Source: an uncultured Selenomonadales bacterium
GTDB lineage: Bacteria > Bacillota > Negativicutes > Selenomonadales > Selenomonadaceae
Reading direction: 5' to 3'
NCBI GenBank assembly: GCA_947165145.1
Contig: CAMUZG010000016.1
Coordinates: 1 to 50,126 of the forward strand
DNA: 50,126 nt
Shown here one piece after another: positions 811-38,520 of this stretch. Position numbers and translations under genes: made by a program. The notes under the pieces are model-generated. The model did no database searches. It saw only the letters and a list, made by a program, of their open reading frames with translations, and was not told the origin of the DNA. Every line of letters begins with the position of its first letter. Position 1 is the first letter of the stretch.

Positions 811-930
811 TCGACCGTCATGGATGACGGTCGCCCCGTCGCTCGTTCAAGGATTGAACGAACGCGGGGGTTATGCGCCTTTTCTTTGCTTACTTTCTTT
901 TGGCGCAACAAAAGAAAGTAAGATAAAAAA
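811..930 (+). repeat. GGA-hairpin repeat, copy A (short, divergent copy)
   Basis: Hairpin 1 has arms 812-820 and 825-833 (CGACCGTCA/TGACGGTCG) with loop TGGA. Hairpin 2 has inner arms 844-850 and 854-860 (CGTTCAA/TTGAACG) around GGA, plus an outer CCCCG/CGGGG clamp. Hairpin 3 has arms 889-902 and 909-922, a perfect 14-bp stem beginning CTTACTTTC, followed by an A/T-rich run. The order, the GGA loops and the CTTTTCTTT tract match copies B, C and D, but the middle segment of about 50 bp is missing. Confidence 0.7.
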
Positions 931-1072
931 ATTTAATTCAAATTCAACGTCTCGGACGTTCACGAAGTGCACGACAACAAAATTTTCCCGCGACACTACT
1001 TCGATTTTTGTTGACGTGACGCCACTTTATTGATAAAATCCTGCCAACGAAAAAAATTTTTTTCAAAACTCT

Positions 1073-1099
1073 TAAGGTTGTACAACCAAACTCCGATAC
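1073..1099 (+). promoter_or_regulatory. Sigma-28 (FliA) promoter for flagellin
   Basis: TAAG at 1073-1076, 15 bp, then TCCGATAC at 1092-1099. This is close to the FliA/SigD consensus TAAA-N15-GCCGATAA, with the correct spacing. A fliA gene is present in the same window. It implies a flagellin leader of about 160 nt. Confidence 0.7.
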
Positions 1100-1266
1100 T
1101 GTTTTCAAGAAGGCAATCAGCGGGTTACAAGTTGCGGCACTCGTTACGCGTGCGAGGCTCGAAGTCCCGACGACGGTCGGGATTGCAACGAAACTCGTTC
1201 GTTTGGCGGCGGTAAGGAAACCGTCGCGAATAAGGAAATTGTTCTAAAATCAAGGAGGAAATTATC

Positions 1267-3420
1267 ATGGCAATGGTAGTAAAGAACAACTTGTCTGCGG
1301 TTCGTACGCTTAACATTCTCAACAGCAACAGCTCCGCTCTGCAAAAGGGTATGGCTAGAGTCTCCAGCGGCATGAAGATCACCGGTGCCCAAGACGACGC
1401 AGCAGGTTTTGCAATCTCTGAACGCATGCGCGTTCGCATCCGTGCTCTCGATCAAGCTAACCAAAACTCCCAAAACGACTCCAGCTTGATGAAAACCGCT
1501 GAAGGCGCGGTTGGCAACACTATCGATATCCTCAAGGCTCTCAAGGAAAAGTGCATCAACGCCGCCAACGATTCCAACACCGACGAAGATCGCCAGACCA
1601 TCCAAAAGGAAATCGACCAGTACATCGACCAAATCGATGACAATGCTCAAGTTACCTTCAACGGCAAATCTCTCGTTGACGGCACCAAAAACAACGCTGC
1701 TGTCGCAACCAAGACCATCCTCCTCAACCAAAGCTTGAAAGTCGGCACTTTGGCAAGCGATCTCCTTACCTCTTACAAGAATCGTGTGGGCGACTCTCTC
1801 GGCATTCAAGAAACCGACTACTATCAAGTTTCTTGGGTTGAGAACGGCAATATCCACACCACCAGCGGTCAAGTCGGCACAAAATCCCTCTCAGATATTT
1901 TGTCAACACCTGATGCCAATGGTGCTACTCTTCAGGCCACTGTCGCTGCAACTGGCACCGACGGCAAAATCGGAACGACAGAGACAAGTCGAACTGCGGG
2001 CTATACTTCGGCGTTCACGTTTGAAGAGCAGACGGAACTGTCTTCTGCACAAGTTATTAATAAACTGGGTGCTTGGGGCATAAATGGTGGTACCGATTCG
2101 GCTATTGATATTGCTCTTGCACCAGGTAGCTTAAACGCAACAGATTTGACGATTACCGGTTACAAAGCGAACATTCCTGACTCCGAAGGCAACCCGAATC
2201 TTGTCGATGCGACTATAACCGTTAAGCAGACTGACAGCACAACAGGATATGAGAAATACTCCATCACCATAACGGACGCGAACGGCGATCCGCTCAAAGA
2301 TGCAAGCGGCACAGTTGTTGAAAAGCCTACCCTTTATAAGGCTGTGGATACGGCGGCAAGTAAAACGGCAGTCGATTCTACGGGAACGCCGGTGTCGGCC
2401 GCAGATGCCGGTTCCGGTTACCTCGATGCTCCGACAGCGGCAACAAACAAACTCAACAATACTTCCTATCTCTATGCTTCCGGTAGTTGGCCGACAGAAA
2501 TTCAGAATTTTGCTGATGAAGTAGGTTTTACTATTGCGGCTAATGCGACGTTTGATATGTCCACTTCGGGCTACTATATAAAGAGTGGCAATTCGTACGT
2601 AGCGGCTACGGGAACAATATCAATTGACGCTGGCGGGAACACTGCTACCGTAGGATCAAACAACTTCGTCGGTCAGCAACTCTATAAATTCAACACCGAG
2701 ACGCCCGGTGAAATTGCCACCATTTCCGGCGGTGCCAATGTTAACAGTAAGTTAAGCTACAAAGTTCCTGGCACGATCACTGTCGACACGATTAGCGATG
2801 AAAAAGAAGTCGCTGACAAGTACAACAAAGACGTCTACACTCCCGACAATACGCAAGGTTTGGCTGTTGTCGCTAAAACGGCCGGCGTCGACGAGCAAAT
2901 TTCCGGTCTTACGATCAGCATCCTCGACCAAGACCTCAACGTCAAAAAGTCGGCAAACGCGGCTCTCGACCAGTTCAAACAGTATCAGCGCGCAGAGAAC
3001 AAGACGGGCGATAATGCTCTGAACTTCCATCTCGGCTCCGAAGCCAACCAGGCAATCAAAGTTGGCTTTAGCGATATGCGTGCACAGGCTCTCGGTCTGA
3101 AAGGCGCAGACGGCACCAGAATCAACGTCTACACGAAAGAGAACGCCAACGCGTCCATCAACGTTATTGAAAACGCGTTGACCAAAGCTCTTGACCAGCA
3201 GACCACGATCGGCGCAGTCGAATCCCGCCTCGAATACACCAGCGCGAACCTCACGACTGCGAGCGAGAACGTCCAAGCATCGGAGAGCACGATTCGCGAC
3301 GCGGATATGGCGAAAGAAATGACCAACTACACGAAGGCAAATGTCCTTCTGCAGGCGGCACAAGCCATGTTGGCACAAGCGAACCAGAGCAGCTCCTCCG
3401 TTCTCAGCTTGCTCCAGTAA
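1267..3420 (+). CDS. fliC: Flagellin, large (717 aa) with expanded central domain
   Basis: This is the flagellar filament subunit, exported by the flagellar type III apparatus. The N-terminal D0/D1 part (residues about 1-150) carries the conserved VSSGMKITGAQDDAAGFAISERM block. The C-terminal D1/D0 part (about 590-717) has RDADMAKEMTNYTKANVLLQ and ends in SVLSLLQ. Between them lie about 430 variable, Thr/Ser/Asp-rich residues with no cysteine, presumably surface-exposed D2/D3 domains; typical flagellins have 270-500 residues in all. AGGAGG at 1253-1258 sets the ATG at 1267. Transcription is from the sigma-28 promoter at 1073-1099 and ends at the hairpin at 3463. Codon choice in the centre differs from the ends (more ACG, GCG and GCT, fewer of the preferred C-ending codons), which suggests a faster-evolving or exchanged segment. 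Confidence 0.96.
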   Translation: MAMVVKNNLSAVRTLNILNSNSSALQKGMARVSSGMKITGAQDDAAGFAISERMRVRIRALDQANQNSQNDSSLMKTAEGAVGNTIDILKALKEKCINAANDSNTDEDRQTIQKEIDQYIDQIDDNAQVTFNGKSLVDGTKNNAAVATKTILLNQSLKVGTLASDLLTSYKNRVGDSLGIQETDYYQVSWVENGNIHTTSGQVGTKSLSDILSTPDANGATLQATVAATGTDGKIGTTETSRTAGYTSAFTFEEQTELSSAQVINKLGAWGINGGTDSAIDIALAPGSLNATDLTITGYKANIPDSEGNPNLVDATITVKQTDSTTGYEKYSITITDANGDPLKDASGTVVEKPTLYKAVDTAASKTAVDSTGTPVSAADAGSGYLDAPTAATNKLNNTSYLYASGSWPTEIQNFADEVGFTIAANATFDMSTSGYYIKSGNSYVAATGTISIDAGGNTATVGSNNFVGQQLYKFNTETPGEIATISGGANVNSKLSYKVPGTITVDTISDEKEVADKYNKDVYTPDNTQGLAVVAKTAGVDEQISGLTISILDQDLNVKKSANAALDQFKQYQRAENKTGDNALNFHLGSEANQAIKVGFSDMRAQALGLKGADGTRINVYTKENANASINVIENALTKALDQQTTIGAVESRLEYTSANLTTASENVQASESTIRDADMAKEMTNYTKANVLLQAAQAMLAQANQSSSSVLSLLQ

Positions 3421-3462
3421 TATTCAGCGTCCGCAAGGGCGCAGGTTGTTCGATACTTACAA

Positions 3463-3494
3463 GATCGTCGACTTCGGTCGGCGGTCTTTTTTTT
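3463..3494 (+). terminator. Rho-independent terminator of flagellin
   Basis: A 10-bp stem (3463-3472 with 3477-3486, two G-U pairs) closes a TTCG tetraloop and is followed by eight T residues. Confidence 0.92.
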
Positions 3495-3496
3495 AA

Positions 3497-3566
3497 TTAG
3501 GAATTTGGAATTAGGAATTTGGAATTAGAAACCTATAACCTATAAGCTAAAAGCTAAAAGCTAATC
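3497..3566 (+). repeat. Heptamer array, 10 units (70 bp)
   Basis: Ten consecutive 7-bp units: first TTAGGAA/TTTGGAA alternating, then CCTATAA twice, then GCTAAAA twice and GCTAATC. The array changes from a GGAATT-type block to an AGCT-type block without losing the 7-bp phase. It lies between the flagellin terminator and the yybS promoter. Confidence 0.85.
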
Positions 3567-3569
3567 CTC

Positions 3570-3598
3570 TGGTAAAAGTCGGCGGCGTTTGCTATAAT
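3570..3598 (+). promoter_or_regulatory. Promoter for yybS-gdpP
   Basis: A perfect TATAAT at 3593-3598, preceded by a weak -35 TGGTAA at 3570-3575 with 17-bp spacing. Transcription would begin near 3605, so the upstream ATG at 3597 cannot be the start codon. Confidence 0.55.
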
Positions 3599-3626
3599 GC
3601 ATAAAATTTTCCTGCGAGGTCATGTG

Positions 3627-4577
3627 ATGAGAAAAAATTTAACGCCGACAATCGAAAGCGGACTGTTGGCGGCAATGACGGTGATATTGGGGCTCGTGAC
3701 GGTCTATGTTCCGCTGTTGGGAATGTTGACCGAATTTTTCTGCGCGGTACCGTTGGCGGTGCTGACGGCTCGACACGGTGCAGGCAAAGGCTTGAGTGCG
3801 CTTGTAGTCGCGACGCTCGTTTTGTCGATGTTAATCAGCCCGATATTGTCGTTGCGTCTGGCAATGAGTTCGGGAGTTTGCGGCGTGATATTGGGTTGGT
3901 GCGTGTGGAAAAAATTCGGTGCGACAAGAATTTTCTTTACGACATTGATTGCGGCGTCAATGGCTCAGGTTGTGACGTTGGCATTGTTGCTTGCCGTCTT
4001 GGACTTGAACTTCATCGAAACGCAAATTGAAATCCTGCGCGAAGCTTTCGACGAATCGTTCAAAATGTACGAATCAATGGGCGTCGACCCTGCACGAATC
4101 GCCGAGACAAAAAGTCAAGTCGATCCGGCATTGCAGTCGCTGATGATTTTGATTCCGACGCTCTTGATGTTGTCCGCGCTGATGAGCACGGTTGCGACGT
4201 GGCTGACTTCGCGTTGGATTTTCCCGAAATTGCGGTTGACGTTGCCGAAACTCCCGTCCTTCGCCGAGTGGAAATTCCCCGCAATCTTCCTGTACATGGC
4301 GGCATTCGGCGGTATCGGAATATATTGGGGCTTCACGCGCGGTTGGAACGTCATTTACGAAATTTCGCTGAACTTGACGATTGTCGCGATGATAATCGGT
4401 TTGATTCAAGGTTTGTCGCTGATGTCGTTCATCTTTGACCGCTATAAAGTTTCAAAGTTCGTGCGGCGATTTTTGTACGTGCTGTTGATTCTGAACATGT
4501 TCCTGTTGCAACTCGTGGCGATAACCGGTTTGATTGACACGCTCTTCGACTATCGCAAACGATTTTTCAAAGATTGA
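3627..4577 (+). CDS. yybS: YybS family (DUF2232) multipass membrane protein
   Basis: This integral membrane protein of about 316 residues has around seven or eight hydrophobic segments and few charged residues outside the loops. Length and layout match the YybS/DUF2232 family, which resembles ECF-transporter substrate-binding (S) components; its substrate is not established. The most polar part (residues about 130-165) would be a loop. GCGAGGT at 3614-3620 favours ATG 3627 over the upstream ATG 3597, which overlaps the -10 box. The next gene is gdpP, 23 bp downstream; the same pair is conserved in Bacillus subtilis, where it is followed by rplI, absent here. Confidence 0.8.
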   Translation: MRKNLTPTIESGLLAAMTVILGLVTVYVPLLGMLTEFFCAVPLAVLTARHGAGKGLSALVVATLVLSMLISPILSLRLAMSSGVCGVILGWCVWKKFGATRIFFTTLIAASMAQVVTLALLLAVLDLNFIETQIEILREAFDESFKMYESMGVDPARIAETKSQVDPALQSLMILIPTLLMLSALMSTVATWLTSRWIFPKLRLTLPKLPSFAEWKFPAIFLYMAAFGGIGIYWGFTRGWNVIYEISLNLTIVAMIIGLIQGLSLMSFIFDRYKVSKFVRRFLYVLLILNMFLLQLVAITGLIDTLFDYRKRFFKD

Positions 4578-4600
4578 ACGGCTCCTAAGGAGATGATGAC

Positions 4601-6673: not shown

Positions 6674-6691
6674 GTTGGTAGATTGTTGAAG

Positions 6692-6727
6692 ACGGGCACG
6701 CCGATATTCGCGGTGATGCTCGTTTTT
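6692..6727 (+). terminator. Terminator of gdpP
   Basis: A 12-bp stem with one bulged A (ACGGGCACGCCG paired with CGGTGATGCTCGT) and loop ATATTCG is followed by TTTTT. It lies between convergent gdpP and metQ. Confidence 0.65.
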
Positions 6728-6791
6728 GATTGCAAAAAAATACGTGATGCGTCGCGATTGACACACCACGTATAAAATTTTCCGTTCAGTT

Positions 6792-7622: not shown

Positions 7623-7655
7623 AAAAATTTCTCCTTGTGATGTGTTACGCCGCGC

Positions 7656-7683: not shown

Positions 7684-7699
7684 GCTTGCCGCCCGACGC

Positions 7700-7728: not shown

Positions 7729-7734
7729 CCTAAA

Positions 7735-13560: not shown

Positions 13561-15147
13561 TTGCAGATAAAAGTTTTTAAAGCCGGCAACATGAAAGACG
13601 CCATGACTGCAATGAAGGCGGAGCTCGGCGATGAAGCTGTTATATTGCACAGCAAGAAATATAAAGAAGGCGGACTGTTGGGCATTGGTAGCCGCGAAGT
13701 CGTCGAGATAACTGCGGCGGTCGAAGAAAATTCAATGCCGAAAAAACAGGAGCCTCAGCGAACGACTGCGCCCGCCTCCGTTGTGAATCGTTACAAGACC
13801 GACGGAACTGCTCAAGGCGTGGCTGAAGCTGAACAGAACGTCGAACAGAGCAATCAGATTGATTCGCTCGTTGAAAAAGTTTCTGCGCAAAAAAATTCCG
13901 ACGTCGACGAAAAATCTGAATCTAAACCTGCTGAAGAATCTAAACCTGTCGATGAATCTAAGCCCGCTGGAGAATCTAAGCCTGTCGATGAATCTAAGCC
14001 CGCCGAAGAATCTAAGCCTGTCGATGAATCTAAGCCCGCTGAAGAATCTAAGCCCGCTGAAGAATCTAAGCCCGCCGACGAATCGCAACCTGCTGACGAA
14101 TCGACAACGCCGCAACCAAACGCCGCATTCACGCAGGAACAAATGGCTCAGACGCAGGCAATGATTATGGCGCAGTTCAATCAAATGCAGATGATGCAAC
14201 AGGCGGCAATCGCTCAAGCACAGGCAGCCGAACAGCTCCGCATTCAACAAGAACAGTCCGCGCAGTCGCCGCCGAACGAAGACAAAATCCGCCGCCTTGA
14301 AGACGAAATCGCGCAGATGAAAGCATTGCTCGCCGAAGTCTTAGGTCGCGACTCGAAACGCGGCACGCTCTCTCTGCACGAGGCAATGAAACTGCAAGAA
14401 GTCGACGAAGAAATTTTAACTGAAATGGCAACGCAATCGAACCCTGGCGACACGCTCGTTGATGTTCATTCGCCCACTGCAAAAGCGACGCTGACAAAAT
14501 ATCTGACTGATCACATGCTCTTTTCGGACGGAATAAAACTCAATCGGCACGGCGTGAGGATTGTCGCATTGCTCGGCACAACGGGCGTCGGCAAAACTAC
14601 AACGCTCGCCAAAATCGCCGCAAAATTCGTCTTGGAACAACGCACAAACGCCGCACTAATCACCGCTGACACTTACCGCATTTCCGCCGTCGAACAGCTC
14701 AAAACTTATTCGGACATTCTCGAACTGCCGCTGGAAATCGTTTACAATCCGCAGGAGCTTAGCTCGGCAATCGAACGTTACCGCGACAAAGAATTGATTC
14801 TGATTGATACCGCCGGTCGCAGTCAGCACAACGAATATCAAATGCGCGAACTGGAAGATTTCCTGCGAGTCAATCCGCGTATCGAAAAACATCTGGTCAT
14901 CAGCGCAACGACCAAATTAACCGACGCCCGCCAGATTATGAATAAATTTTCGCAAGTCAATCCCGACAAAATCATTTTCACGAAGACCGACGAGACAAGT
15001 AGCCTGGGCATGATTATAAATCTTTTGCGCGATACAAAATACGCGCTGTCATACGTCACAACGGGGCAAAGCGTCCCCGACGACATTGAACGCGCGACCG
15101 TCGACGTGCTGACGAATTTTCTGATGAGAAAAGTCGACGAGTTGTGA
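13561..15147 (+). CDS. flhF: Flagellar SRP-type GTPase FlhF
   Basis: FlhF is the third SRP GTPase, a membrane-associated protein that sets flagellar placement. The 528 residues divide into an N-terminal segment (QIKVFKAGNMKDAMTAMKAELGDEAVILHSKK, about 1-60), a low-complexity linker including ten ESKPAE-type hexapeptides (about 120-179), a Gln/Met-rich stretch (about 195-240), and the NG domain with P-loop GTTGVGKTTTLAKIAAKF (about 338-355), ADTYRISAVEQL, DTAGRS and TKTDE. It is longer than the roughly 370-430 residues usual for FlhF because of the linker. Start: TTG 13561, preceded by GGTGGTGA; no upstream start exists. flhG follows after 14 bp. Confidence 0.95.
   Translation: MQIKVFKAGNMKDAMTAMKAELGDEAVILHSKKYKEGGLLGIGSREVVEITAAVEENSMPKKQEPQRTTAPASVVNRYKTDGTAQGVAEAEQNVEQSNQIDSLVEKVSAQKNSDVDEKSESKPAEESKPVDESKPAGESKPVDESKPAEESKPVDESKPAEESKPAEESKPADESQPADESTTPQPNAAFTQEQMAQTQAMIMAQFNQMQMMQQAAIAQAQAAEQLRIQQEQSAQSPPNEDKIRRLEDEIAQMKALLAEVLGRDSKRGTLSLHEAMKLQEVDEEILTEMATQSNPGDTLVDVHSPTAKATLTKYLTDHMLFSDGIKLNRHGVRIVALLGTTGVGKTTTLAKIAAKFVLEQRTNAALITADTYRISAVEQLKTYSDILELPLEIVYNPQELSSAIERYRDKELILIDTAGRSQHNEYQMRELEDFLRVNPRIEKHLVISATTKLTDARQIMNKFSQVNPDKIIFTKTDETSSLGMIINLLRDTKYALSYVTTGQSVPDDIERATVDVLTNFLMRKVDEL
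13918..14097 (+). repeat. 18-bp tandem repeat inside flhF (10 units)
   Basis: Ten exact-length units of the type GAATCTAAGCCTGTCGAT encode ESKP followed by AE, VD, AG or AD. Units 2-7 alternate VD with A(E/G), so a 36-bp higher-order period is visible. The last unit reads ESQPAD. Confidence 0.95.
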
Positions 15148-18853: not shown

Positions 18854-18863
18854 AAAGCAATGA

Positions 18864-18933
18864 GGAATTAGGAATTTGAAATTAGGAATGATGACGCGCT
18901 TTTCAATTCCTAATTCCCGATTCCTAATTCTTT
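18864..18933 (+). repeat. Heptamer inverted repeat, 10 units (70 bp), between acpP and fabK
   Basis: Left arm of GGAATTA-type units (18864-18891), a 14-bp centre, and right arm of ATTCCTA-type units (18906-18933), all in 7-bp phase. The arms are largely complementary, so a long A-T-rich hairpin could form in the mRNA between acpP and fabK. Confidence 0.85.
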
Positions 18934-18950
18934 TTGGAGAGGATTAATCC

Positions 18951-21303: not shown

Positions 21304-21480
21304 GGAGCCGACAAGGATGTCGGCTCCCCGCCGGCAACTGAAACAGGATGTTTCATTTGTCGGCACCACGAACTACGGTTAGTCTCAACGTTGACTGCAT
21401 GAAGACTGAGCCGCCCCTGCGAGGTGTCTTTTCTTTTTGTTACTTTTTCTTTGGACACGCAAAGAAAAAGTAAATCTAAA
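21304..21480 (+). repeat. GGA-hairpin repeat, copy B
   Basis: Hairpin 1: 10-bp stem GGAGCCGACA/TGTCGGCTCC with loop AGGA. Hairpin 2 (21330-21364): inner stem TGAAACA/TGTTTCA around GGA, outer GCCGGCAA/TTGTCGGC. The middle segment has a further stem pairing GGTTAGTCT with AGACTGAGCC. Hairpin 3: perfect 14-bp stem, arms 21440-21453 and 21460-21473, loop GACACG. Hairpins 1 and 2 contain ACAAGGATGT and ACAGGATGT, close to the CsrA consensus. Confidence 0.85.
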
Positions 21481-21617: not shown

Positions 21618-22154
21618 TTGTCGTTGAAGGACACGAGCAAATTTTTGAGCCTGCTCCTGCGCCACAAACCGCAACTTGTCGGCTTGCAACTTGATGAGCA
21701 CGGTTGGGCTGACGTTGAGGATTTGATTCGCCGCGTGAATCGCAAACGCCCGCTTGACTTGCCGACACTTGAACAAATCGTCGCGACGGACGACAAGCAA
21801 CGCTATTCATTCAGCGCGGACGGCAAATTGATTCGCGCCAATCAAGGGCACTCAATCCCCGTGGACGTGGAACTTGCCGAACTTGAACCGCCCGAAATTT
21901 TGTATCACGGCACAAGCGAGCGATTCGCGGCGTCGATACGTGATCAAGGGCTGATTCGCAAATCGCGGCTGTACGTCCACTTGTCAAGCGACATCGACAC
22001 CGCAACGAAGGTCGGCAAACGTCACGGCACCCCGAAAATTTTTCTGGTCGAAAGCGGCAAAATGTTCGCTGACGGTCATAAATTTTTTAAATCAGTCAAC
22101 GGCGTATGGTTGACCGAACACGTCCCCGCAATTTACCTAAAGGAGAGATTTTGA
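21618..22154 (+). CDS. kptA: RNA 2'-phosphotransferase KptA/Tpt1
   Basis: This Tpt1-family enzyme removes an RNA 2'-phosphate by transfer to NAD+, giving ADP-ribose 1'',2''-cyclic phosphate. The 178 residues match the whole family: SKFLSLLLRHKPQLVGLQLDEHGWADVEDLI (winged-helix part with the Arg-His pair), then the ADP-ribosyl-transferase part ILYHGTSERFAASIRDQGL, RLYVHLSSDIDTATKVGKRHGTP and NGVWLTEHVPAIYL. In yeast it finishes tRNA splicing; in bacteria the natural substrate is unclear. TTG 21618 is 7 nt after GAGAGGTG. The stop overlaps the start of the next gene (TGATG), implying coupled translation. Confidence 0.94.
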   Translation: MSLKDTSKFLSLLLRHKPQLVGLQLDEHGWADVEDLIRRVNRKRPLDLPTLEQIVATDDKQRYSFSADGKLIRANQGHSIPVDVELAELEPPEILYHGTSERFAASIRDQGLIRKSRLYVHLSSDIDTATKVGKRHGTPKIFLVESGKMFADGHKFFKSVNGVWLTEHVPAIYLKERF

Positions 22155-22430: not shown

Positions 22431-22610
22431 GAGGCCGACAGGACGTCGGCCGCCCGTCGCCCAGAAAACAGGATGTTTTCGAAGGCGACAACCACGAGCT
22501 ACGGTTGGTCTCAACGTTGGAATCGTGAAGACTGAGCCGCCCCTGCGAGGTGCCTTTTCTTTTGCTACTTTTCTTTGGGCATGCAAAGAAAAGTTGATCA
22601 TCAACTTTTT
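22431..22610 (+). repeat. GGA-hairpin repeat, copy C, in the fabF leader
   Basis: Hairpin 1: GGCCGAC/GTCGGCC around AGGAC. Hairpin 2 (22456-22489): GAAAACA/TGTTTTC around GGA, outer GTCGCC/GGCGAC. The middle segment pairs GGTTGGTCT with AGACTGAGCC, with a loop that also contains GGA. Hairpin 3: ACTTTTCTTTG/CAAAGAAAAGT (22567-22594). A second palindrome, arms AAAAGTTGA (22589-22597) and TCAACTTTT (22601-22609), shares bases with hairpin 3 and ends right before the fabF Shine-Dalgarno. Confidence 0.88.
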
Positions 22611-24595: not shown

Positions 24596-26083
24596 ATGGC
24601 TACAGTTCCGAAGAAAATTTGGCAAAACAGTTACCAACTTTACATCGGCGGGCAATGGCGCGACGCTGAGGACGGCAAGACTTTCAACGTGTACAATCCC
24701 GCGAACGGCGACTTCATGGCGAAATGCGCTGCCGCAAGCAAAGCCGACGTTGACGACGCAGTAAAAGCCGCGTGGAGTGCGTTTCCCACGTGGAAGAAAA
24801 CTTCGCCAGCCGAACGCGCCGCAATTCTCCTCAAAATCGCTGACATCATCGACGTAAACAAAGAGTATCTCGCAATGATTGAGACGCTCGACAACGGCAA
24901 GCCTATTCGCGAAACAATGAACATCGATATTCCAATGGGCTCCGACCACTTCCGCTACTTCGCAGGCGTCATTCGTTCGGAAGAAGGCTCCGCAAGCATG
25001 ATAAACGACAACACGCTGAGCATTATCCTCAACGAACCGATCGGCGTCGTCGGGCAAATCGTGCCGTGGAATTTCCCGTATCTTATGGCGGCGTGGAAAT
25101 TAGCTCCTGCGTTGGCGGCGGGCGATTGCATTGTCTTCAAGCCGTCAAGTGCCACGTCGTTAAGCGTCCTCGAACTCATGAAGCTCATCGAAAACGAACT
25201 TCCTGCGGGCGTCCTCAACATCGTTACGGGTTCGGGTAGCAAGACGGGACAATTCGTTCTTGACCACCCCGACATCCGCAAGCTTGCGTTCACCGGCTCG
25301 ACCGAAGTCGGTTATTCCGTCGCGAAGGCGGCCGCTGATAAATTGATTCCTGCGACGCTCGAACTCGGCGGGAAGTCTGCCAACATTTATTTCGACGATT
25401 GCAACTTCGACAAGGCGATTGACGGCGCGTGCGTTGGTATTCTGTTCAATCAGGGTCAAGTTTGCTGTGCGGGCTCAAGAATTTTCGTGCAGGAAAAAAT
25501 TTACGACAAATTCCTCGCCGCGCTGAAGACTAAGTTTGAAAGCGTCAAAGTCGGATTGCCTTGGGAACCGGATACGCAAATGGGCAGCCAAATCGACAAC
25601 CGTCAGCTTGAAAAAATTTTGAACTACATCGCAATCGGCAGGGCTGAAGGTGCGCAAGTCATCACGGGCGGCAAACGTGCGTTCGTCGAAGGCGGCGAGA
25701 ACGGTGCCTTCATGCAACCGACGATTCTTGCCGACGTGAACAATTCCATGCGCGTTGCCTGCGAAGAAATTTTCGGACCCGTTGCCGTCGTTATCAAGTT
25801 CCGCGACGAAGAAGAAGTCATCAAAATGGCGAACGACAGCGAATACGGCTTGGGCGGCGCAGTATGGTCGCAGGACATCAATCGAGCGATTCGTGTCGCT
25901 CGTGCAATCGAAAGCGGAAGAATTTGGATTAACACCTACAACGAATTGAGCGCGGGCGCACCTTTCGGCGGTTACAAAAAATCGGGCATCGGTCGCGAAA
26001 CTCACAAGCTCATAATGAATTCTTACACGCAAAAAAAGAACATCTACATCAGCCTGAACGAATCACCGACAGGATTTTATTGA
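24596..26083 (+). CDS. NAD(P)-dependent aldehyde dehydrogenase
   Basis: This is a classical aldehyde dehydrogenase of 495 residues that oxidises an aldehyde to its acid. Motifs: VGQIVPWNFPYLMAAWKLAPALAAG, the cofactor motif FTGSTEVGYSVAKAAA, the general-base Glu in LELGGKSANIYFDD, the catalytic Cys in NQGQVCCAGSRIFVQ, EEIFGPVAVVIKF and the C-terminal APFGGYKKSGIGRE. It is closest to betaine/acetaldehyde-type enzymes (AldA, YwdH, AdhE-independent); the substrate is not predictable. GGGAGGAA lies before ATG 24596. Single gene, with a heptamer hairpin directly downstream that may end the transcript. Confidence 0.93.
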   Translation: MATVPKKIWQNSYQLYIGGQWRDAEDGKTFNVYNPANGDFMAKCAAASKADVDDAVKAAWSAFPTWKKTSPAERAAILLKIADIIDVNKEYLAMIETLDNGKPIRETMNIDIPMGSDHFRYFAGVIRSEEGSASMINDNTLSIILNEPIGVVGQIVPWNFPYLMAAWKLAPALAAGDCIVFKPSSATSLSVLELMKLIENELPAGVLNIVTGSGSKTGQFVLDHPDIRKLAFTGSTEVGYSVAKAAADKLIPATLELGGKSANIYFDDCNFDKAIDGACVGILFNQGQVCCAGSRIFVQEKIYDKFLAALKTKFESVKVGLPWEPDTQMGSQIDNRQLEKILNYIAIGRAEGAQVITGGKRAFVEGGENGAFMQPTILADVNNSMRVACEEIFGPVAVVIKFRDEEEVIKMANDSEYGLGGAVWSQDINRAIRVARAIESGRIWINTYNELSAGAPFGGYKKSGIGRETHKLIMNSYTQKKNIYISLNESPTGFY

Positions 26084-26087
26084 GTTT

Positions 26088-26164
26088 GGAATGTGGAATG
26101 TGGAATTAGGAATTAAAACCGCGTTATCATTCCACATTCCTAATTCCACATTCCTAATTCTAAC
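26088..26164 (+). repeat. Heptamer inverted repeat (11 units) after the aldehyde dehydrogenase
   Basis: GGAATGT twice and GGAATTA twice, a 14-bp centre, then TTCCACA and TTCCTAA alternating, all in 7-bp phase. The arms are mostly complementary. It begins 5 bp after the stop codon and ends just before the Shine-Dalgarno of the exporter gene. Confidence 0.85.
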
Positions 26165-31679: not shown

Positions 31680-31795
31680 TGTTCATTTCCCCTGGCTTTG
31701 ATGTGATAGAATAAGTTTAGCATAAACAAATTCTTTCTTTCAAATTATTATTGGAGATTTGCTTATGCTTTCTATCGTCATGCGAGGTGAGCAAA

Positions 31796-32677: not shown

Positions 32678-32733
32678 TTAGAGCGTGTTAATAAACTGAA
32701 ACTATTACGTGACGAGGAATTTTTTCGACTGAC

Positions 32734-32778
32734 AGGGCTTAACGTCCGAATGGTTAACCGAGAGTCCCTAATTTTTTT
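32734..32778 (+). terminator. Possible terminator or leader hairpin before cheB
   Basis: AGGG/CCCT closes an inner TTAAC/GTTAA stem with large internal loops, and seven T residues follow. It may end the pflX-like transcript, or be part of a structured cheB leader. The folding is my own hand reading and not compelling. Confidence 0.35.
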
Positions 32779-32897
32779 GCCGCATTGAAGGAACTTTATC
32801 AAGTCAAGCGAATAGTAAAGTGATTAATTGCAATGTAACGGCAGACGGCGCGAGTCGTCGACAAAAAAAATTTTCAGCTGAAGGGGAGGCGTCCAAA

Positions 32898-34040
32898 GTG
32901 ATTCGTATTTTGATTGCTGATGACTCGGCTTTTATGCGAAAAGTCCTCTCTGATTTGTTCAACAGTCAAAACGACTTCCAAGTTGTCGGCACGGCGGTTA
33001 ACGGTCAAGACACCATTGAAAAAGTCAAGCGACTTCAACCAGACGTGTTGACGCTCGACGTTATCATGCCGGTGATGGACGGTCTCGAAGCGTTGGCAAT
33101 CATCATGGAGCAATGCCCTTTGCCCGTGATAATGATAAGCTCGACGACGCAGAAAGGCACCAACGAAACAATCAGAGCATTGGCACTCGGCGCGGTAGAT
33201 TTCGTCAGCAAGGCAGGCGGCGCAATCTCCAAAATCGACACGATTAAAGACGACATACTGATGAAATGCAGAATGGCGGCCAAAGCTCGTGCACGAAAAA
33301 ATTTCACCGCGAGCACGCCAATCGTCTACAAACCAAAATTGTCAAGCGAAGAACCTACCATGCGTCGAATAGAAGTCAAACGCAGAACAGGTTTTATTCC
33401 CATGCCAAGACCAACGCTCACTCGACAACCCGCAACGGTTGAGCCCGTCAAAAAAATTATTCCAGGCACAGGCAAAAAGCTCGTGGTTATCGGAACATCA
33501 ACGGGCGGTCCGCAAGCACTGCAAGCCGTCATAACGCGTCTGCCCGCAAATCTTCCCTGCGGCGTCGTCGTCGTGCAACACATGCCCGCCGGCTTCACAA
33601 AATCGCTTGCCGAGAGATTGAACTCAATCAGCGAAATCGCGGTCAAAGAGGCTGAACAAGATGAAATTATCCGTCCTGGTCAAGTCTACATTGCGCCAGG
33701 CGATTATCATTTGAGAATTTTCCCCGCAGGTGGCGAACGGAAAATTGTGTTGAGCCAAGAACCGCGTGTCGGTAATCTTCGTCCAACCGTCAATTACATG
33801 TACGAATCAGCCGCGCAATTCGGCAGAGATTTAGTCAGCGTCATAATGACGGGCATGGGTAGCGATGGTTGCGAAGGTATGAAAAAAATTAAAGCGACAG
33901 GCGGCTATTCAATCGCGCAAAACGAAGAAACTTGCGTCGTGTACGGAATGCCGAGAGCTGTAGTTGAAGCGGGGCTCGCTGACGAAGTAATCCCCTTGAA
34001 TAAAATTGCCGAGGCTATCGTCGAGGCAGTGAGGAGATAG
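32898..34040 (+). CDS. cheB: Chemotaxis response regulator and methylesterase CheB
   Basis: CheB removes methyl groups from chemoreceptor glutamates (and deamidates glutamines) during adaptation. The 380 residues comprise an N-terminal receiver (VIRILIADDSAFMRKVL; phospho-acceptor Asp54 in LTLDVIMPVMDG), a linker of some 70 residues, and the methylesterase domain with its triad: Ser in GTSTGGPQAL, His in VVVQHMPAGF, Asp in MTGMGSDGCEGM. GTG 32898 follows GGGGAGGCG (32883-32891); the longer frame from 32820 has no homology. First gene of the che run. Confidence 0.96.
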   Translation: MIRILIADDSAFMRKVLSDLFNSQNDFQVVGTAVNGQDTIEKVKRLQPDVLTLDVIMPVMDGLEALAIIMEQCPLPVIMISSTTQKGTNETIRALALGAVDFVSKAGGAISKIDTIKDDILMKCRMAAKARARKNFTASTPIVYKPKLSSEEPTMRRIEVKRRTGFIPMPRPTLTRQPATVEPVKKIIPGTGKKLVVIGTSTGGPQALQAVITRLPANLPCGVVVVQHMPAGFTKSLAERLNSISEIAVKEAEQDEIIRPGQVYIAPGDYHLRIFPAGGERKIVLSQEPRVGNLRPTVNYMYESAAQFGRDLVSVIMTGMGSDGCEGMKKIKATGGYSIAQNEETCVVYGMPRAVVEAGLADEVIPLNKIAEAIVEAVRR

Positions 34041-34080
34041 GCGATTTTATTTTGCAGATAAATTTACAGGAGGCTTTTGC

Positions 34081-36201
34081 ATGGAAACCAATCAATACAT
34101 GGATATGTTTCTGGATGAGTCGCATGAACATTTGCAGTCGCTCAATGACGGATTATTGGGCTTGGAAGACAACGCAGAGGATCTTTCGATTCTGAACGAA
34201 ATCTTCCGCAACGCCCACACACTAAAGGGAATGTCCGCCACAATGGGCTACAACAAAATCGCCGAACTCACTCACGAGATGGAAGACGTTCTCGACATGC
34301 TCCGCAAGGAACAGCTCAAAGTAAATGGCGACATCATCGACACCCTTTTCAAGTGCATTGATTCCCTTGAGCAGATGATTAACAACGTTGCCAATGGCGA
34401 CCCAGAAGATCTTATCGATGTTTCAGATTTGGTTGCCAAACTCTCCGCAATTCTGCGCGGCGAAGATCCTAATGCAATGTTGACTGGTCAAGCAGTCCCT
34501 GCGGCATCAGCACCTGCTCCTGCGGCAACAACTTCAGACACGTCAGCGGCAGCTGTAAGCGCAGATCTTCCCGTCGAAATTTCCGACACGGAAAAAAATC
34601 TCATTCTCGAAGCGCGCAAACGCGGTATGCGCGGCATTTATCTCAAGGTCACGCTCGCCGATTCTTGTCTGCTCAAGTCAGCACGCTCTTACATGGTTAT
34701 GAACGCACTCGACGAAATCGGCGAAGTTATCCGCACAATTCCTTCCGCTGAAGACCTTGAACAGGAAGCGTTCGAGTTTACGTTTGAAGTCATTCTTATC
34801 ACCGCGTCCGAAGAATCGGCCGTTCAAAACGCGGTCATGTCAATTTCGGAAATCGACAAGGCGGAAACAATCGTTATAAGGTTCGATACTCCTCAATCCG
34901 AACAAGCTCAACAGACTGCCGCACCTGCGCCGCAACCTGCTCAACCGTCAGCGTCGACCGCGCCCGCAACTCAACCGAAATCTTCTTTACCGGTCAATAA
35001 ACCTTCCGCATCGCCGCCACCTACTCAATCCGCCGCCGCAGGTAAAAAATCTCACGCAGGACAATCAGTCCGCGTCGACATCGATAAACTCGACAACCTC
35101 ATGAATCTCATGGGCGAGCTCGTTATCAATAAAGTTCGTCTGGAACAAATCGGGCAAACACACAGATTATCCGAACTCACCGAGACTTTGGAGCAAATGG
35201 ACCGCGTCACCACAGACCTTCAAAATATCGTCATGAAAGTCCGCATGGTTCCCGTCAGCCAAGTCTTTAACCGTTTCCCGCGCATGGTTCGCGACGTTAC
35301 CAAGGAACTCAACAAGGAAATTAACTTGACAATCGAAGGCGAGGACACCGAACTCGACCGCACCGTTATCGACGAAATCGGCGACCCCATCATGCATCTG
35401 CTGAGGAATTCGCTTGACCACGGTATCGAAATGCCTGACGAACGCGAAGCCAAGGGCAAGCCTCGCGTCGGCGAAGTCGGTCTTATCGCGCGCCACGAAG
35501 GCAACAACGTCGTTATCATGGTTACCGACGACGGCAAGGGCATTGACGCCGACATTATTCGCCGCAAAGCTGTCGAAAAGGGGCTGTACACTCAAGACGA
35601 AGTCGACTCAATGGACGACTCCGACGCTGTCCGAATCGTCTTTCTGCCAGGCTTTTCCACGGCGGAAAAAATCAGCGACATTTCGGGACGCGGCGTCGGT
35701 ATGGACGTTGTCCGCAGTAAAATCGAATCGCTGTCGGGACAAGTCGACGTTGAGACGCACGTCAACGAAGGTTCCGTTTTCAAGATTAAGTTGCCGCTGA
35801 CGTTGGCGATTATTCAAGCGATGTTGGTACAGGTGCAAGACGAAATGTACGCCATACCGCTCGCGTCAATCGACAGCACGTTGAGCGTTCAGCCGACCGA
35901 CATTCGCACCGTCCAAAATAACGAGGTTATCGTCCTGCGCGGCGAAATCATTCCGATAATCCGCATGGAAGAAACGCTTATGGTTCCGCACGTGAAAGAT
36001 TCGCATGAACTGTTCGTGGTTGTCGTGCACGCGGGCGACTCCAAAGCCGGTATCGTCGTCGACAAGCTTATCGGTCAGCAGGAAATCGTTATCAAGACGC
36101 TGGGCAACTTGTTCATGGGCTTGAAGATGTTCTCAGGCGCGACGGTGCTCGGCGACGGTCGCGTAGCTCTGATTCTCGACGTGGCAACCATGCTTAACTA
36201 A
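34081..36201 (+). CDS. cheA: Chemotaxis histidine kinase CheA
   Basis: The central chemotaxis kinase, a cytoplasmic dimer at receptor arrays. 706 residues with all five domains: P1/HPt (His46 in RNAHTLKGMSATMGY), P2 (about 165-275), a Pro/Ala/Gln-rich linker (about 280-325), P3 dimerisation helices (VRVDIDKLDNLMNLMGELVINKVRLEQI), P4 ATPase (LLRNSLDHGIE, DDGKGID, DISGRGVGMDVVRSKIESLSG) and P5/CheW-like (IPLASIDSTLSV). ACAGGAGGC precedes the ATG. cheW follows after 12 bp. Confidence 0.97.
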   Translation: METNQYMDMFLDESHEHLQSLNDGLLGLEDNAEDLSILNEIFRNAHTLKGMSATMGYNKIAELTHEMEDVLDMLRKEQLKVNGDIIDTLFKCIDSLEQMINNVANGDPEDLIDVSDLVAKLSAILRGEDPNAMLTGQAVPAASAPAPAATTSDTSAAAVSADLPVEISDTEKNLILEARKRGMRGIYLKVTLADSCLLKSARSYMVMNALDEIGEVIRTIPSAEDLEQEAFEFTFEVILITASEESAVQNAVMSISEIDKAETIVIRFDTPQSEQAQQTAAPAPQPAQPSASTAPATQPKSSLPVNKPSASPPPTQSAAAGKKSHAGQSVRVDIDKLDNLMNLMGELVINKVRLEQIGQTHRLSELTETLEQMDRVTTDLQNIVMKVRMVPVSQVFNRFPRMVRDVTKELNKEINLTIEGEDTELDRTVIDEIGDPIMHLLRNSLDHGIEMPDEREAKGKPRVGEVGLIARHEGNNVVIMVTDDGKGIDADIIRRKAVEKGLYTQDEVDSMDDSDAVRIVFLPGFSTAEKISDISGRGVGMDVVRSKIESLSGQVDVETHVNEGSVFKIKLPLTLAIIQAMLVQVQDEMYAIPLASIDSTLSVQPTDIRTVQNNEVIVLRGEIIPIIRMEETLMVPHVKDSHELFVVVVHAGDSKAGIVVDKLIGQQEIVIKTLGNLFMGLKMFSGATVLGDGRVALILDVATMLN

Positions 36202-36213
36202 GGAGGAATTCTA

Positions 36214-36705
36214 ATGGCTAAAGACAGCGCGGCAAATAAAAAGCGCACCCCGGTTGACGACCTCGACGGCGAGGAACAGATTGAGGCTATGCAAGTCGTC
36301 GCGTTCAAATTGCGTGACGAAGAATACGGCGTAAATATTTTTCACGTGCAAGAAATTCGCAACCTTGTCGATATAACGCGCGTCCCCTTCGCGGCAAGCT
36401 TTATCAAGGGCGTTATCAATCAGCGCGGCTCGGTTATGCCCGTTATCGACTTGAAAAAGCGGCTCGGCATTGAGGAGACGCCTTACACCTCCTTGACCCG
36501 AATCGTTACCGTTATCGTTGACGACCTGCAAGTCGGCATGTTGGTTGACGCCGTCACCGAAGTTTTGACTATCCGCACAAAGCTCGTCGACCCGAAAAAA
36601 ACCGTCAGCGACAGGGCTATGGAAAAATTCTTGAGCGGCATTGGCAACATCGACGGTCGCCTTGTCACCATGCTCAATCTTGAAGAAATCGTCAATGCTA
36701 ACTAA
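36214..36705 (+). CDS. cheW: Chemotaxis coupling protein CheW
   Basis: Couples CheA to methyl-accepting receptors. 163 residues; an N-terminal tail of about 25 charged residues precedes the CheW fold: MQVVAFKLRDEEYGVNIFHVQEIRNL, the interface motif GVINQRGSVMPVIDLKKRLG, and VDAVTEVLTI. AAGGAGGAA sets the ATG. An octamer-array hairpin (36712-36793) lies between it and cheC. Confidence 0.96.
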   Translation: MAKDSAANKKRTPVDDLDGEEQIEAMQVVAFKLRDEEYGVNIFHVQEIRNLVDITRVPFAASFIKGVINQRGSVMPVIDLKKRLGIEETPYTSLTRIVTVIVDDLQVGMLVDAVTEVLTIRTKLVDPKKTVSDRAMEKFLSGIGNIDGRLVTMLNLEEIVNAN

Positions 36706-36711
36706 GGGGTC

Positions 36712-36793
36712 AGGTTAGTAGGGAATTAGGTTAATAGGTTATTAGAAAAGTCTTTCACTATTAACCTACTAACCTATTAACCTATTAACCTAC
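36712..36793 (+). repeat. Octamer array forming a long inverted repeat between cheW and cheC
   Basis: Four AGGTTAGT-like units with 8-bp period (36712-36743), a short centre, then four AACCTATT-like units (36763-36793). The arms are complementary over about 30 bp. It is related in style to the heptamer arrays but has period 8. It ends just before the cheC Shine-Dalgarno AAGGAGG. Confidence 0.85.
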
Positions 36794-36808
36794 AAAGGAG
36801 GTTTTGAA

Positions 36809-37423
36809 ATGCTTGATGAATTTAACTTGTCAGCGAATCAGCTCGACGCTCTGCGCGAAATCGGCAACGTCGGTGCAGGAAATTCGGCTACTGCACTGTC
36901 ACAAGTCATCAACAAAAAAATCGATATGAACGTCCCGAAAGTTTCGATCATCCCGATTGAAGACGTGCCCGACCTCGTCGGCGGTCCCGATGCGTTAGTC
37001 GTCGCAGTATTTTTGCGTGTCTACGGCAGAGCACCAGGAAATATTCTTTTCCTCATGCCGAAAGAAAACGCGTTCTATCTCGTCGACGATTTGATGGGCA
37101 GAGAACACGGCACAACACAAAGTTTGGACGAAATGGATGTTTCCGCGCTGAAAGAAGTCGGCAATATCTTGACGGGCTCATATCTCAACGCGTTCTTCCA
37201 CTTCACGAATATTTCAATGATACCGTCAATCCCGTCGTTAGCAATGGACATGGCGGGCGCAATCTTAAACGTCGTGTTGGTGCAGCTCGGACAAATGGGC
37301 GATCACGCTTTGGTTATCGAAACAAAATTCCTAGCGGAAGATGACAGCGTCAACGGACATTTTTTCCTCGTGCCCGATCCAGGCTCATTGGGCACTTTGG
37401 TCAAAGCAGTGGGGGTTGAATAA
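36809..37423 (+). CDS. cheC: CheY-P phosphatase CheC
   Basis: 204 residues of the CheC/CheX/FliY family. Two phosphatase centres are visible, each with the Glu-Asn pair: LREIGNVGAGNSATALSQ (about 15-32) and LKEVGNILTGSYLNAF (about 112-127). It removes phosphate from CheY and binds CheD. Transcription continues from cheW through the octamer repeat, or begins inside it. cheD begins 2 bp after the stop. Confidence 0.96.
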   Translation: MLDEFNLSANQLDALREIGNVGAGNSATALSQVINKKIDMNVPKVSIIPIEDVPDLVGGPDALVVAVFLRVYGRAPGNILFLMPKENAFYLVDDLMGREHGTTQSLDEMDVSALKEVGNILTGSYLNAFFHFTNISMIPSIPSLAMDMAGAILNVVLVQLGQMGDHALVIETKFLAEDDSVNGHFFLVPDPGSLGTLVKAVGVE

Positions 37424-37425
37424 TT

Positions 37426-37911
37426 ATGGCAGACCTTATCAAAGTCGGCATGGCTGATTACAAGGTCGGTCGTAGTCCGTCCACGCTAATAAGTTACGGT
37501 TTGGGCTCGTGTATCGGAATTTCGCTTTATGACCCGCAACGTAAAATCGGCGGTCTTCTGCATATCATGTTGCCCGACAGCACGCAAGCCCGTTCCAGCG
37601 ATAATCCTGCAAAATTCGCCGATACAGGTATTCCGCTGATGATTAACGATGTCATTGCGTTGGGAGCGTCGCGTTCCAGGCTCGTCGCCAAAATCGCGGG
37701 CGGGGCTCAAATGTTCGCCTTCTCCAACGCTACCGACATTATGCGCGTCGGCACACGCAATGCCGAAAGTTGCAAACAAATCCTAAAACGCAACGGCATC
37801 AGAGTTATCGCCGAGGACACGGGCGGCACATACGGGCGCACAGTTTCTATCGATTTGTCGACTGGTGCCTACAAAGTCAAAACCATTGACCGCGGCGAGA
37901 AAAATATCTAG
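37426..37911 (+). CDS. cheD: Chemoreceptor glutamine deamidase CheD
   Basis: 161 residues. CheD deamidates receptor glutamines and stimulates CheC. The catalytic Cys is in YGLGSCIGISL, the His in GGLLHIMLPDS, and the Thr-Gly region is KIAGGAQMF. The start ATG lies 2 bp after the cheC stop, with GGGGGTTG inside the end of cheC serving as ribosome site, so translation is coupled. Confidence 0.96.
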   Translation: MADLIKVGMADYKVGRSPSTLISYGLGSCIGISLYDPQRKIGGLLHIMLPDSTQARSSDNPAKFADTGIPLMINDVIALGASRSRLVAKIAGGAQMFAFSNATDIMRVGTRNAESCKQILKRNGIRVIAEDTGGTYGRTVSIDLSTGAYKVKTIDRGEKNI

Positions 37912-37923
37912 TGGTGATTGACT

Positions 37924-38337
37924 GTGACAGGATTTTACAACTATCTTGAAAGCATCATGCCCGTCAAAAGAGTTCTAATCTCGTTGGCAGTGGGCATGGT
38001 GTCATTGTTTATCGTGCTTATTTCGGGGCTGACAAGTGAGTTCGTGCGCAGTGAAACAATTGCGTCGCGAACTTTTTCAGCCTTTTGTTTTACAGGCTCG
38101 CTGGCATTTATTTTGATGATGAGTTGCGAAGAATACGCCATTTACAAAACCAAACGGGAGCTTGAACACTTTATTGACGACGCGCCAATCGAAGAGAGCG
38201 ACGAAGATTTCAACCGCGCGGAATATCTTCACGAGGACGAGGAAGAACCTGTTGCCGACAATGAATCTGCCAACGCTGAACCTGCTACCGACGACAACAC
38301 TTTCCGCCCGATTGACTTTGCTGGACATCAAGCGTAA
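37924..38337 (+). CDS. Small membrane protein of unknown function in the che-fliA cluster
   Basis: About 137 residues. Two membrane helices (about 18-37 and 52-69) are followed by a charged helix and a very acidic tail of about 55 residues rich in Glu, Asp and Asn. GTG 37924 is preferred over TTG 37918 because GTGGTGA lies 6 nt before it. No family was recognised. Position between cheD and fliA suggests a role in motility; B. subtilis has another small membrane protein, SwrB/YlxL, after sigD, but I see no sequence evidence of a relation. Confidence 0.7.
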   Translation: MTGFYNYLESIMPVKRVLISLAVGMVSLFIVLISGLTSEFVRSETIASRTFSAFCFTGSLAFILMMSCEEYAIYKTKRELEHFIDDAPIEESDEDFNRAEYLHEDEEEPVADNESANAEPATDDNTFRPIDFAGHQA

Positions 38338-38340
38338 TTT

Positions 38341-38520
38341 GAGGCCGTCAAGGATGACGGCCTCCCCGTCGCCTCTGAAAACGTGATGTTTTCACAGGCG
38401 ACAACCACGAGTCACGGGTAGTCTCGACGCTGGAATCGTTTGGACTGAACGCCCCCGCGAGGTGCCCTTTCTTTTGCAACTTTTCTTTGGGCATGCAAAG
38501 AAAAGTTGATCATCAAACTT
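38341..38520 (+). repeat. GGA-hairpin repeat, copy D, upstream of fliA
   Basis: Hairpin 1: GAGGCCGTCA/TGACGGCCTC with loop AGGA. Hairpin 2 (38368-38402): TGAAAAC/GTTTTCA, outer GTCGCCT/AGGCGAC; its loop reads GTGAT, so GGA has been lost. The middle segment contains two further GGA motifs. Hairpin 3: AACTTTTCTTTG/CAAAGAAAAGTT (38478-38507), loop GGCATG, followed by TGATCATCA as in copy C. Confidence 0.88.

What the first reader, a model, noticed from the sequence alone, without database searches (positions are those of the whole stretch)
811..38520. Four-copy intergenic element displaying CsrA-like GGA hairpins
Copies at 811-930, 21304-21480, 22431-22610 and 38341-38520 share one architecture. 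Two strong hairpins come first; in seven of the eight the loop presents GGA. A variable middle stem and a third long pyrimidine/purine hairpin (TTTCTTTG/CAAAGAAA) follow. The loop contexts include ACAAGGATGT and ACAGGATGT (copy B) and ACAGGATGT and ACAGGACGT (copy C). The CsrA SELEX consensus is RUACARGGAUGU with GGA in a hairpin loop (established knowledge). The stems differ in sequence between copies but stay paired (GGAGCC.., GGCCGAC, GAGGCCGTC, CGACCGTC), i.e. compensatory changes that argue for selection on RNA structure. All four are on the + strand upstream of + strand genes, two of them flagellar (flagellin, fliA). Possibilities: leader elements controlled by CsrA, small CsrB/RsmY-like RNAs that titrate CsrA, or a mobile element with this structure.
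Basis: partly seen in the sequence, partly recalled or inferred. Interest (0 to 1): 0.85.

Follow-up and report, generated by a model that had tools for sequence, protein, structure and literature searches.

The report
Dispersed RNA repeat with triplex pseudoknot
The four similar intergenic sequences are copies of a widespread, apparently mobile bacterial repeat whose transcript should fold into two loops that look like docking sites for the regulator CsrA, followed by a knotted, possibly three-stranded structure; I found no catalogue entry for it, and what it does is untested.

Summary
The 3' 'pyrimidine/purine hairpin' is half of an H-type pseudoknot whose loop covaries with the segment upstream. 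The pyrimidine linker between them mirrors the hairpin's pyrimidine strand, as a Hoogsteen third strand must: 175 of 187; asymmetric cases 158 mirror, 0 direct, 9 other. The module recurs in Beta- and Gammaproteobacteria, Selenomonads and a few others. Rfam 15 gave no match for the window or 18 sampled loci. The CsrA reading gains support: GGA loops in 66 of 82 hairpins 5' of the pseudoknot here versus 1 of 23 in control windows. Canonical CA(N)GGANG loops occur in 16 of 22 csrA-positive versus 5 of 52 csrA-negative genomes; any GGA loop in 17 of 22 versus 16 of 52. Clade confounds this. Copy D is absent at its site in 14 of 14 relatives resolved, so it is a recent insertion. CsrA binding, triplex formation, mover and function remain untested.

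The parts
812..833 (+). Copy A, hairpin 1, loop TGGA
834..869 (+). Copy A, hairpin 2, GGA in loop (AAGGATT)
875..922 (+). Copy A, pseudoknot: S1 875-879 with 902-906; third strand T4CT3 880-887; S2 889-901 with 910-922
21304..21327 (+). Copy B, hairpin 1, loop AGGA
21330..21364 (+). Copy B, hairpin 2, ACAGGATGT
21425..21472 (+). Copy B, pseudoknot: S1 UGUCU 21425-21429 with GGACA 21453-21457; third strand T3CT5 21430-21438; S2 21441-21452 with 21461-21472
22433..22451 (+). Copy C, hairpin 1, ACAGGACGT
22456..22489 (+). Copy C, hairpin 2, ACAGGATGT
22551..22594 (+). Copy C, pseudoknot: S1 UGCCU 22551-22555 with GGGCA 22577-22581; third strand T3CT4 22556-22563; S2 22567-22576 with 22585-22594
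38341..38364 (+). Copy D, hairpin 1, loop AGGA
38368..38402 (+). Copy D, hairpin 2, GTGA in loop (the one of eight without GGA)
38463..38508 (+). Copy D, pseudoknot: S1 UGCCC 38463-38467 with GGGCA 38489-38493; third strand T3CT4 38468-38475; S2 38477-38488 with 38497-38508

Best explanation
A dispersed, non-coding, apparently mobile element of about 170-200 nt that acts as a folded single strand, most simply RNA, of its + strand. SHOWN by sequence: two 5' hairpins, mostly with GGA loops, a variable middle, and a 3' H-type pseudoknot (5-bp S1; S2 of 9-13 bp) whose first loop is a pyrimidine strand that mirrors S2. This geometry allows a U.A-U / C+.G-C major-groove triple helix, as in the telomerase RNA pseudoknot (recalled). 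SHOWN: one copy (D) is missing at the orthologous site of relatives, and match numbers vary widely between same-genus drafts. INFERRED: in csrA-bearing hosts a transcribed copy docks a CsrA dimer on its GGA hairpins (two or more in 27 of 37 copies here), and the pseudoknot stabilises or insulates the RNA. In this genome most copies lie in sense before the next gene, so many would be co-transcribed, together offering some 66 GGA-loop hairpins in 37 copies. I think the likeliest effects are local tuning of the downstream gene and diffuse titration of CsrA. How it moves is unknown.
For: S1 covariation: all five pairs form in 37 of 37 own copies (19 with a G-U); pairs 2-5 all formed in 86% of 142 broad-set copies against 41% when loops are permuted. 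In 61 distinct gapless cross-phylum pseudoknots 98.5% of cells pair (89.5 in shuffles), 80 cells have double changes against 19.7, 0 of 500 shuffles as high, slid controls at most 16; the weakest measure, pairs with any double change, is 6 against 4.7, 19 of 500. Third strand, cases chosen by S1 and S2 only: mirror in 175 of 187; outside the type fixed by my pattern scan 50 mirror, 0 direct, 3 other among asymmetric cases. Wobble: G-U to A-C is 43 to 6 in S1 and 41 to 3 at the foot of S2 in the broad set; these are cells, many inherited together. GGA loops: own 66 of 82 hairpins against 1 of 23 in control windows; genus 19 of 28 against 1 of 9; broad 68 of 139 against 14 of 196. csrA association: canonical loop 16 of 22 against 5 of 52 genomes. 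One Methylomonas hairpin has the SELEX consensus in 12 of 12 positions (L095:2853; consensus in PMC6849547 passages). Copy D absent in 14 of 14 relatives.
Against: No transcription, binding or probing data. The csrA association rests on two clades (Methylococcales, Selenomonadaceae); six csrA-positive genomes lack the canonical loop, and 16 of 52 csrA-negative ones have some GGA hairpin. Orientation: 49 of 100 downstream genes co-directional in the broad set and 3 of 8 in other Selenomonads, against a general leader role. For copies A and B promoter-like sites lie downstream of the element. A mirror repeat could also serve as H-DNA. Insertion difference was tested at one site only. No mover found.
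Confidence: 0.6

Rival explanations
1. A DNA-level element: an intrastrand-triplex/MITE-like repeat whose single strand folds during replication or transposition; RNA is irrelevant and the GGA loops are incidental or bind the mover.
For: Mirror repeats are the H-DNA signature (recalled). Bacterial intrastrand triplex repeats are in print (PMC4666352). In the broad set 20 of 22 close pairs face away from each other, like ends of an inverted-repeat element (also Pasteurella and Caballeronia). Orientation random there.
Against: S1 covariation and G-U excess need a folded single strand of fixed polarity, though ssDNA could do this. Sense bias 22 to 3 in this genome, not seen elsewhere. GGA loops track csrA, within two clades.
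Confidence: 0.22
2. Cis-acting CsrA leaders selected at each gene (riboregulators of flagellar and metabolic genes).
For: Copies often end shortly before a ribosome-binding site and start codon (read by eye); the window's copies A and D precede flagellin and sigma genes; csrA and fliW present.
Against: Empty orthologous sites for D; matches from none to 66 or more (the cap) among same-genus genomes; random orientation elsewhere; promoter-like sites downstream of A and B.
Confidence: 0.1
3. Guide-RNA scaffolds (omega/tracr-like) of TnpB or Cas12 proteins, some of which also contain pseudoknot and triplex parts (recalled).
For: Topology only; a search listing shows a Cas12 tracrRNA paper holding both words (PMC11246509, listing only).
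Against: DNA 3' of the pseudoknot looks partly conserved rather than a free guide (by eye); no Rfam match. TnpB itself was not searched.
Confidence: 0.05

Closest known systems
CsrB/CsrC, RsmX/Y/Z CsrA-titrating sRNAs
   Same: Several hairpins with GGA in the loop, canonical CANGGANG context in many
   Different: About two sites per copy, dozens of dispersed copies, 3' pseudoknot; rsmX scores 12.5 bits on copy C against a cut-off of 56
PIT / BoxC / intrastrand triplex motifs (Holder 2015, PMC4666352; abstract, passages and sections 15-16 read)
   Same: Intergenic repeat with three blocks able to form a triplex
   Different: The motif studied there (TMECO) is a G/C-rich purine motif of proteobacteria; the word pseudoknot does not occur in the main text. 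Ours is a pyrimidine motif within a covarying H-type pseudoknot. Whether its ITxF database lists our motif was not testable
REP/REPIN with RAYT, MITEs (recalled)
   Same: Dispersed, non-coding, structured, intergenic; inverted pairs in Proteobacteria
   Different: No Y1/RAYT found in this genome or in G010, G015, G029; no clear terminal repeats or target duplication seen by eye
Telomerase RNA, preQ1-II and SAM-II type triplex pseudoknots (recalled)
   Same: H-type pseudoknot with loop 1 in the major groove of stem 2
   Different: No Rfam match; multicopy element
BRE, Beta-proteobacterial repeat element (Hot 2011, PMC3110155, passages and section 14 read)
   Same: Repeat with mobile features in Polaromonas, Acidovorax, Bordetella, Delftia
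   Different: About 90 bp, mean 69% GC, often tandem; its sequence is not in the text I saw, so identity with part of our betaproteobacterial form is not excluded

Membership tests
CsrA-binding RNA | GGA in the apical loop, context CANGGANG / RUACARGGAUGU | tested here: met
   consensus read in PMC6849547 passages. Met by most copies, not all (e.g. GTGA loop of copy D)
CsrA-binding RNA | csrA in the host | tested here: met
   for this genome, 33 of 37 in the genus set. The pseudoknot element also occurs in genomes without a csrA hit (64 of 90 genomes or records), mostly without canonical loops
CsrA-binding RNA | Physical binding of CsrA | not testable with these tools
   Needs gel shift or CLIP
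CsrB/RsmXYZ sRNA | Match to the Rfam models | tested here: not met
CsrB/RsmXYZ sRNA | One or few genes per genome | tested here: not met
   39 matches
CsrB/RsmXYZ sRNA | Own promoter and terminator | tested here: inconclusive
   Consensus scans of the four copies: no promoter-like site upstream and no + strand terminator; sigma-70 type only
Triplex pseudoknot RNA | Covarying S1 and S2 | tested here: met
Triplex pseudoknot RNA | Loop 1 complementary in Hoogsteen sense to the S2 purine strand | tested here: met
   175 of 187
Triplex pseudoknot RNA | Triple helix actually forms | not testable with these tools
   Needs NMR, SHAPE or a crystal
REP/REPIN-RAYT | RAYT/Y1 transposase in host | tested here: not met
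   no match in G000, G010, G015, G029 (drafts of 79-91% completeness); matches in 5 of 37, among them G028, which has 43 model matches
MITE / mobile element | Empty sites in relatives | tested here: met
   14 of 14 relatives resolved, one site (copy D) only
MITE / mobile element | Terminal inverted repeats and target duplication | tested here: inconclusive
   One search shows none by eye; inverted pairs in Proteobacteria

The most novel reading that the evidence does not exclude
A cross-phylum family of mobile RNA elements, marked by a pseudoknot with a coevolving third strand, that has recruited the host's CsrA at least twice (Methylococcales and Selenomonadaceae) by acquiring or keeping canonical GGA hairpins, so that genome-wide insertions form a distributed, evolvable CsrA sponge and a ready source of CsrA-controlled leaders.
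Probability: 0.33. Interest if true: 0.9.

Novelty: new variant of a known kind. Interest (0 to 1): 0.8.

Why it matters
It appears to be a structured element of Proteobacteria and Negativicutes, with a single record in Fusobacteria and perhaps a few in Bacteroidota, without a match in Rfam 15 where I looked, and with covariation evidence for a pseudoknot whose third strand coevolves. If the CsrA reading is right, a mobile repeat can rewire a global post-transcriptional regulator. In Negativicutes, where no CsrB-like RNA is known to me, it would be a first candidate CsrA-titrating RNA. The third-strand covariation also makes RNA triplex evolution testable on natural variants.

Tried and rejected
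Stand-alone sRNA: rejected on copy number, lack of Rfam match and lack of promoter/terminator signs. Direct duplication as origin of the pyrimidine linker: rejected, 0 direct against 158 mirror among asymmetric cases. RAYT mobilisation: not supported for this genus (G028 is an exception with one partial match). Transposase cargo inside widely spaced inverted pairs: ORFs of three (L100, L157, L160) listed, no transposase recognised by eye, no profile search made. Spread by phages or into E. coli: no match to a 58-nt query in the phages or E. coli genomes collections; 2 stretches of viral contigs match the pattern. csrA presence within the genus does not discriminate. The pattern was badly built (it catches only the T3CT3 type), so its copy counts are low bounds. 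First-pass ORF contexts (downstream co-directional 29 of 38 here, 55 of 111 broad) were redone with the element masked (31 of 38; 49 of 100; 3 of 8 in other Selenomonads). In one search copies with fewer than 4 of 5 S1 pairs or too little upstream sequence were dropped, and 16 of 90 genomes or records then had no usable copy. The csrA-negative genomes with a canonical loop are L133, L117, L151, L168 (MAGs, so possibly incomplete; L133, L117 and L151 are titled as Selenomonadaceae or Methylococcales kin, L168 only as a proteobacterium) and L069 (an odd loop). The antisense control (0 hairpins) is weak, since a GGA loop reads TCC on the other strand. Literature: ten searches; in the rows listed I recognised no description of this element, with BRE left open; one search searched six fragments of its letters and found 0 papers. 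Figures, supplements and subscription journals were not searchable.
Full report
WHAT IS THERE. Each folds better than all 200 shuffles. Seven of eight 5' loops show GGA. BLAST of copy C against the window's own genome (1.94 Mb, 43 contigs, 83% complete) gives 37 strong matches including itself, on both strands, some covering only the 3' part; copy A appears only as a weak match. A covariance model of the 3' two thirds, built from 35 of the 36 distinct copies parsed (copy A left out), gives 39 matches. Hairpin 2 comes in several sequence classes (loops ACAGGATGT, ACGTGATGT, CACGGAAAG and others), hairpin 1 varies in its stem, and RNAalifold on 20 copies shows 13 of 37 pairs with a change on both sides.

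THE PART THAT WAS MISSED. The loop of the third hairpin (GGGCA, GGACA, GUGCG, GGCGC) pairs with the segment just before the pyrimidine linker (UGCCY, UGUCU, CGCAC, GCGCC). All five pairs form in 37 of 37 own copies, 19 of them with a U-G next to the linker; there are only five distinct combinations among them. This is an H-type pseudoknot: S1, loop 1, S2, and a loop 3 of about three bases, often NGC. Loop 1 is itself pyrimidine, T3CT4, T3CT5, T4CT3, T3CT3 or T4CT4 in this genome, and reads as the mirror of the S2 pyrimidine strand. That is what a parallel Hoogsteen third strand on the S2 purine strand requires; a simple duplication would give a direct repeat. Selecting cases by S1 and S2 alone, 175 of 187 mirror. 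Among asymmetric cases 158 mirror, 0 are direct and 9 are neither. 108 of the mirrors are of the type my pattern scan had fixed; outside it the count is 50 mirror, 0 direct, 3 other. Whether the triple helix forms is inferred.

DISTRIBUTION. Of the Bacteroidota hits L118 and L124 have good S1, while L129, L152 and L183 do not and may be chance. Plasmid-collection records add three of Pasteurella multocida and one each of Variovorax, Paraburkholderia, Caballeronia and Ilyobacter, with new S1 combinations such as UGUA/UACA and GCUGC/GCAGC. On 61 distinct gapless pseudoknots, 98.5% of cells pair, with 80 double changes against 19.7 in shuffles and at most 16 when slid. In a survey of 398 genomes of the phylum the relaxed pattern hit 17: five in the window's own family (38, 13, 6, 3 and 1 hits), one with 2 in another family (G526), and 11 singles; the reversed control hit 13 genomes once each. 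Within the genus 29 of 37 genomes match the model, and none of 23 from other families (candidates scored were capped at 66 per genome). The window's genus is that of Quinella sp. 2Q5: G029 and the genome of L071 have csrA at the same place (inference). Rfam 15 has no match for the window or for 18 of the 118 loci (only rRNA and tRNA).

RNA OR DNA. G-U exceeds A-C 43 to 6 in S1, and 41 to 3 at the foot of S2 in the broad set; these are cells, not independent events. The + strand therefore folds as a single strand; RNA is the simplest reading, and ssDNA is not excluded. In this genome the downstream gene is co-directional in 31 of 38 copies, and between co-directional genes copies are sense 22 to 3 (own ORF caller). 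This does not hold elsewhere: 49 of 100 downstream genes in the broad set, and 3 of 8 in other Selenomonads, where co-directional cases are 1 sense to 5 antisense. Consensus scans of the four window copies found no promoter-like site upstream and no terminator on the + strand; the promoter-like sites near A and B lie downstream of the element.

MOBILITY. With the copy D region as query, 36 of 37 genus genomes gave some match. Of the loci fetched, 14 relatives had both flanks resolved, and none has the element there; three of the 14 have longer spacers for other reasons. Only this site was tested. In the broad loci 20 of 22 close pairs are divergent, 17 of the 20 at 261-577 nt, like an inverted-repeat form. 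Methylomonas and Polaromonas copies carry what looks like a second, downstream pseudoknot (by eye; not counted). The REP-type Y1 transposase has no match in this genome or in the high-copy drafts G010, G015 and G029; it has matches in 5 of 37, including G028 with 43 model matches.

THE CsrA QUESTION. In this genome 66 of 82 perfect hairpins 5' of the pseudoknot have GGA in the loop (closing bases counted); control windows 1 of 23. Genus loci: 19 of 28 against 1 of 9. Broad set: 68 of 139 against 14 of 196. The commonest context, CA-N-GGA-UG, is the Rsm/CsrA consensus (passages of PMC6849547). A Methylomonas copy has AUACAAGGAUGU, 12 of 12 of the SELEX consensus. CsrA (PF02599) was then sought in 90 genomes or records that carry the element: 26 have it (14 of 40; 12 of 50). 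Of the 74 with usable copies, canonical loops occur in 16 of 22 csrA-positive and 5 of 52 csrA-negative genomes (Fisher p = 1.3e-7), any GGA hairpin in 17 of 22 and 16 of 52 (p = 3e-4). The p-values ignore phylogeny. The positives are essentially two clades, and six csrA-positive genomes (for example Rheinheimera, L110) have none. This genome has csrA, with the fliW domain match ending 34 bases before it.

MECHANISM. I commit to this: co-transcribed copies present CsrA sites, two or more GGA hairpins in 27 of 37 copies, and the pseudoknot gives a hard 3' structure that may stop exonucleases or hold the RNA apart from the downstream ribosome-binding site. Steps shown: sequence architecture, covariation, one insertion difference, loop motif, csrA association. 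Steps inferred: transcription, CsrA binding, titration, the triplex itself. Not known: the mover.

Noticed in passing
L095:2997-3050, L084:1996-2057, L103:7161-7190: Downstream of the pseudoknot in Methylomonas and Polaromonas copies a further hairpin whose loop can pair with the segment after it (e.g. UGUCGGG with CCCGACA), apparently a second pseudoknot; read by eye, not counted.
   Followed up: partly
L160:980-1801, L157:3452-3877, L100:1899-2793: Some divergent element pairs enclose small ORFs of unrecognised function, as if the pair carried cargo.
   Followed up: partly
L189:2600-3080: Pasteurella multocida carries a divergent pair of the pseudoknots around a long inverted repeat between dapF and a DUF484 gene, with xerC next.
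   Followed up: partly
window 3485-3545, 18856-18936, 26080-26159, 41027-41060: Dispersed short AT-rich repeats of the GGAATTAGGAATT type, a different family.
   Followed up: no
window 13882-14115: 18-bp repeat array within the ORF 13561-15147.
   Followed up: no
window 21618-22151: A KptA/Tpt1 RNA 2'-phosphotransferase gene downstream of copy B.
   Followed up: no
G071 (genome of L109, Silvimonas terrae): 65 pattern hits of the T3CT3 type alone, 0 in the reversed control, and no csrA hit: a high-copy host without csrA.
   Followed up: no
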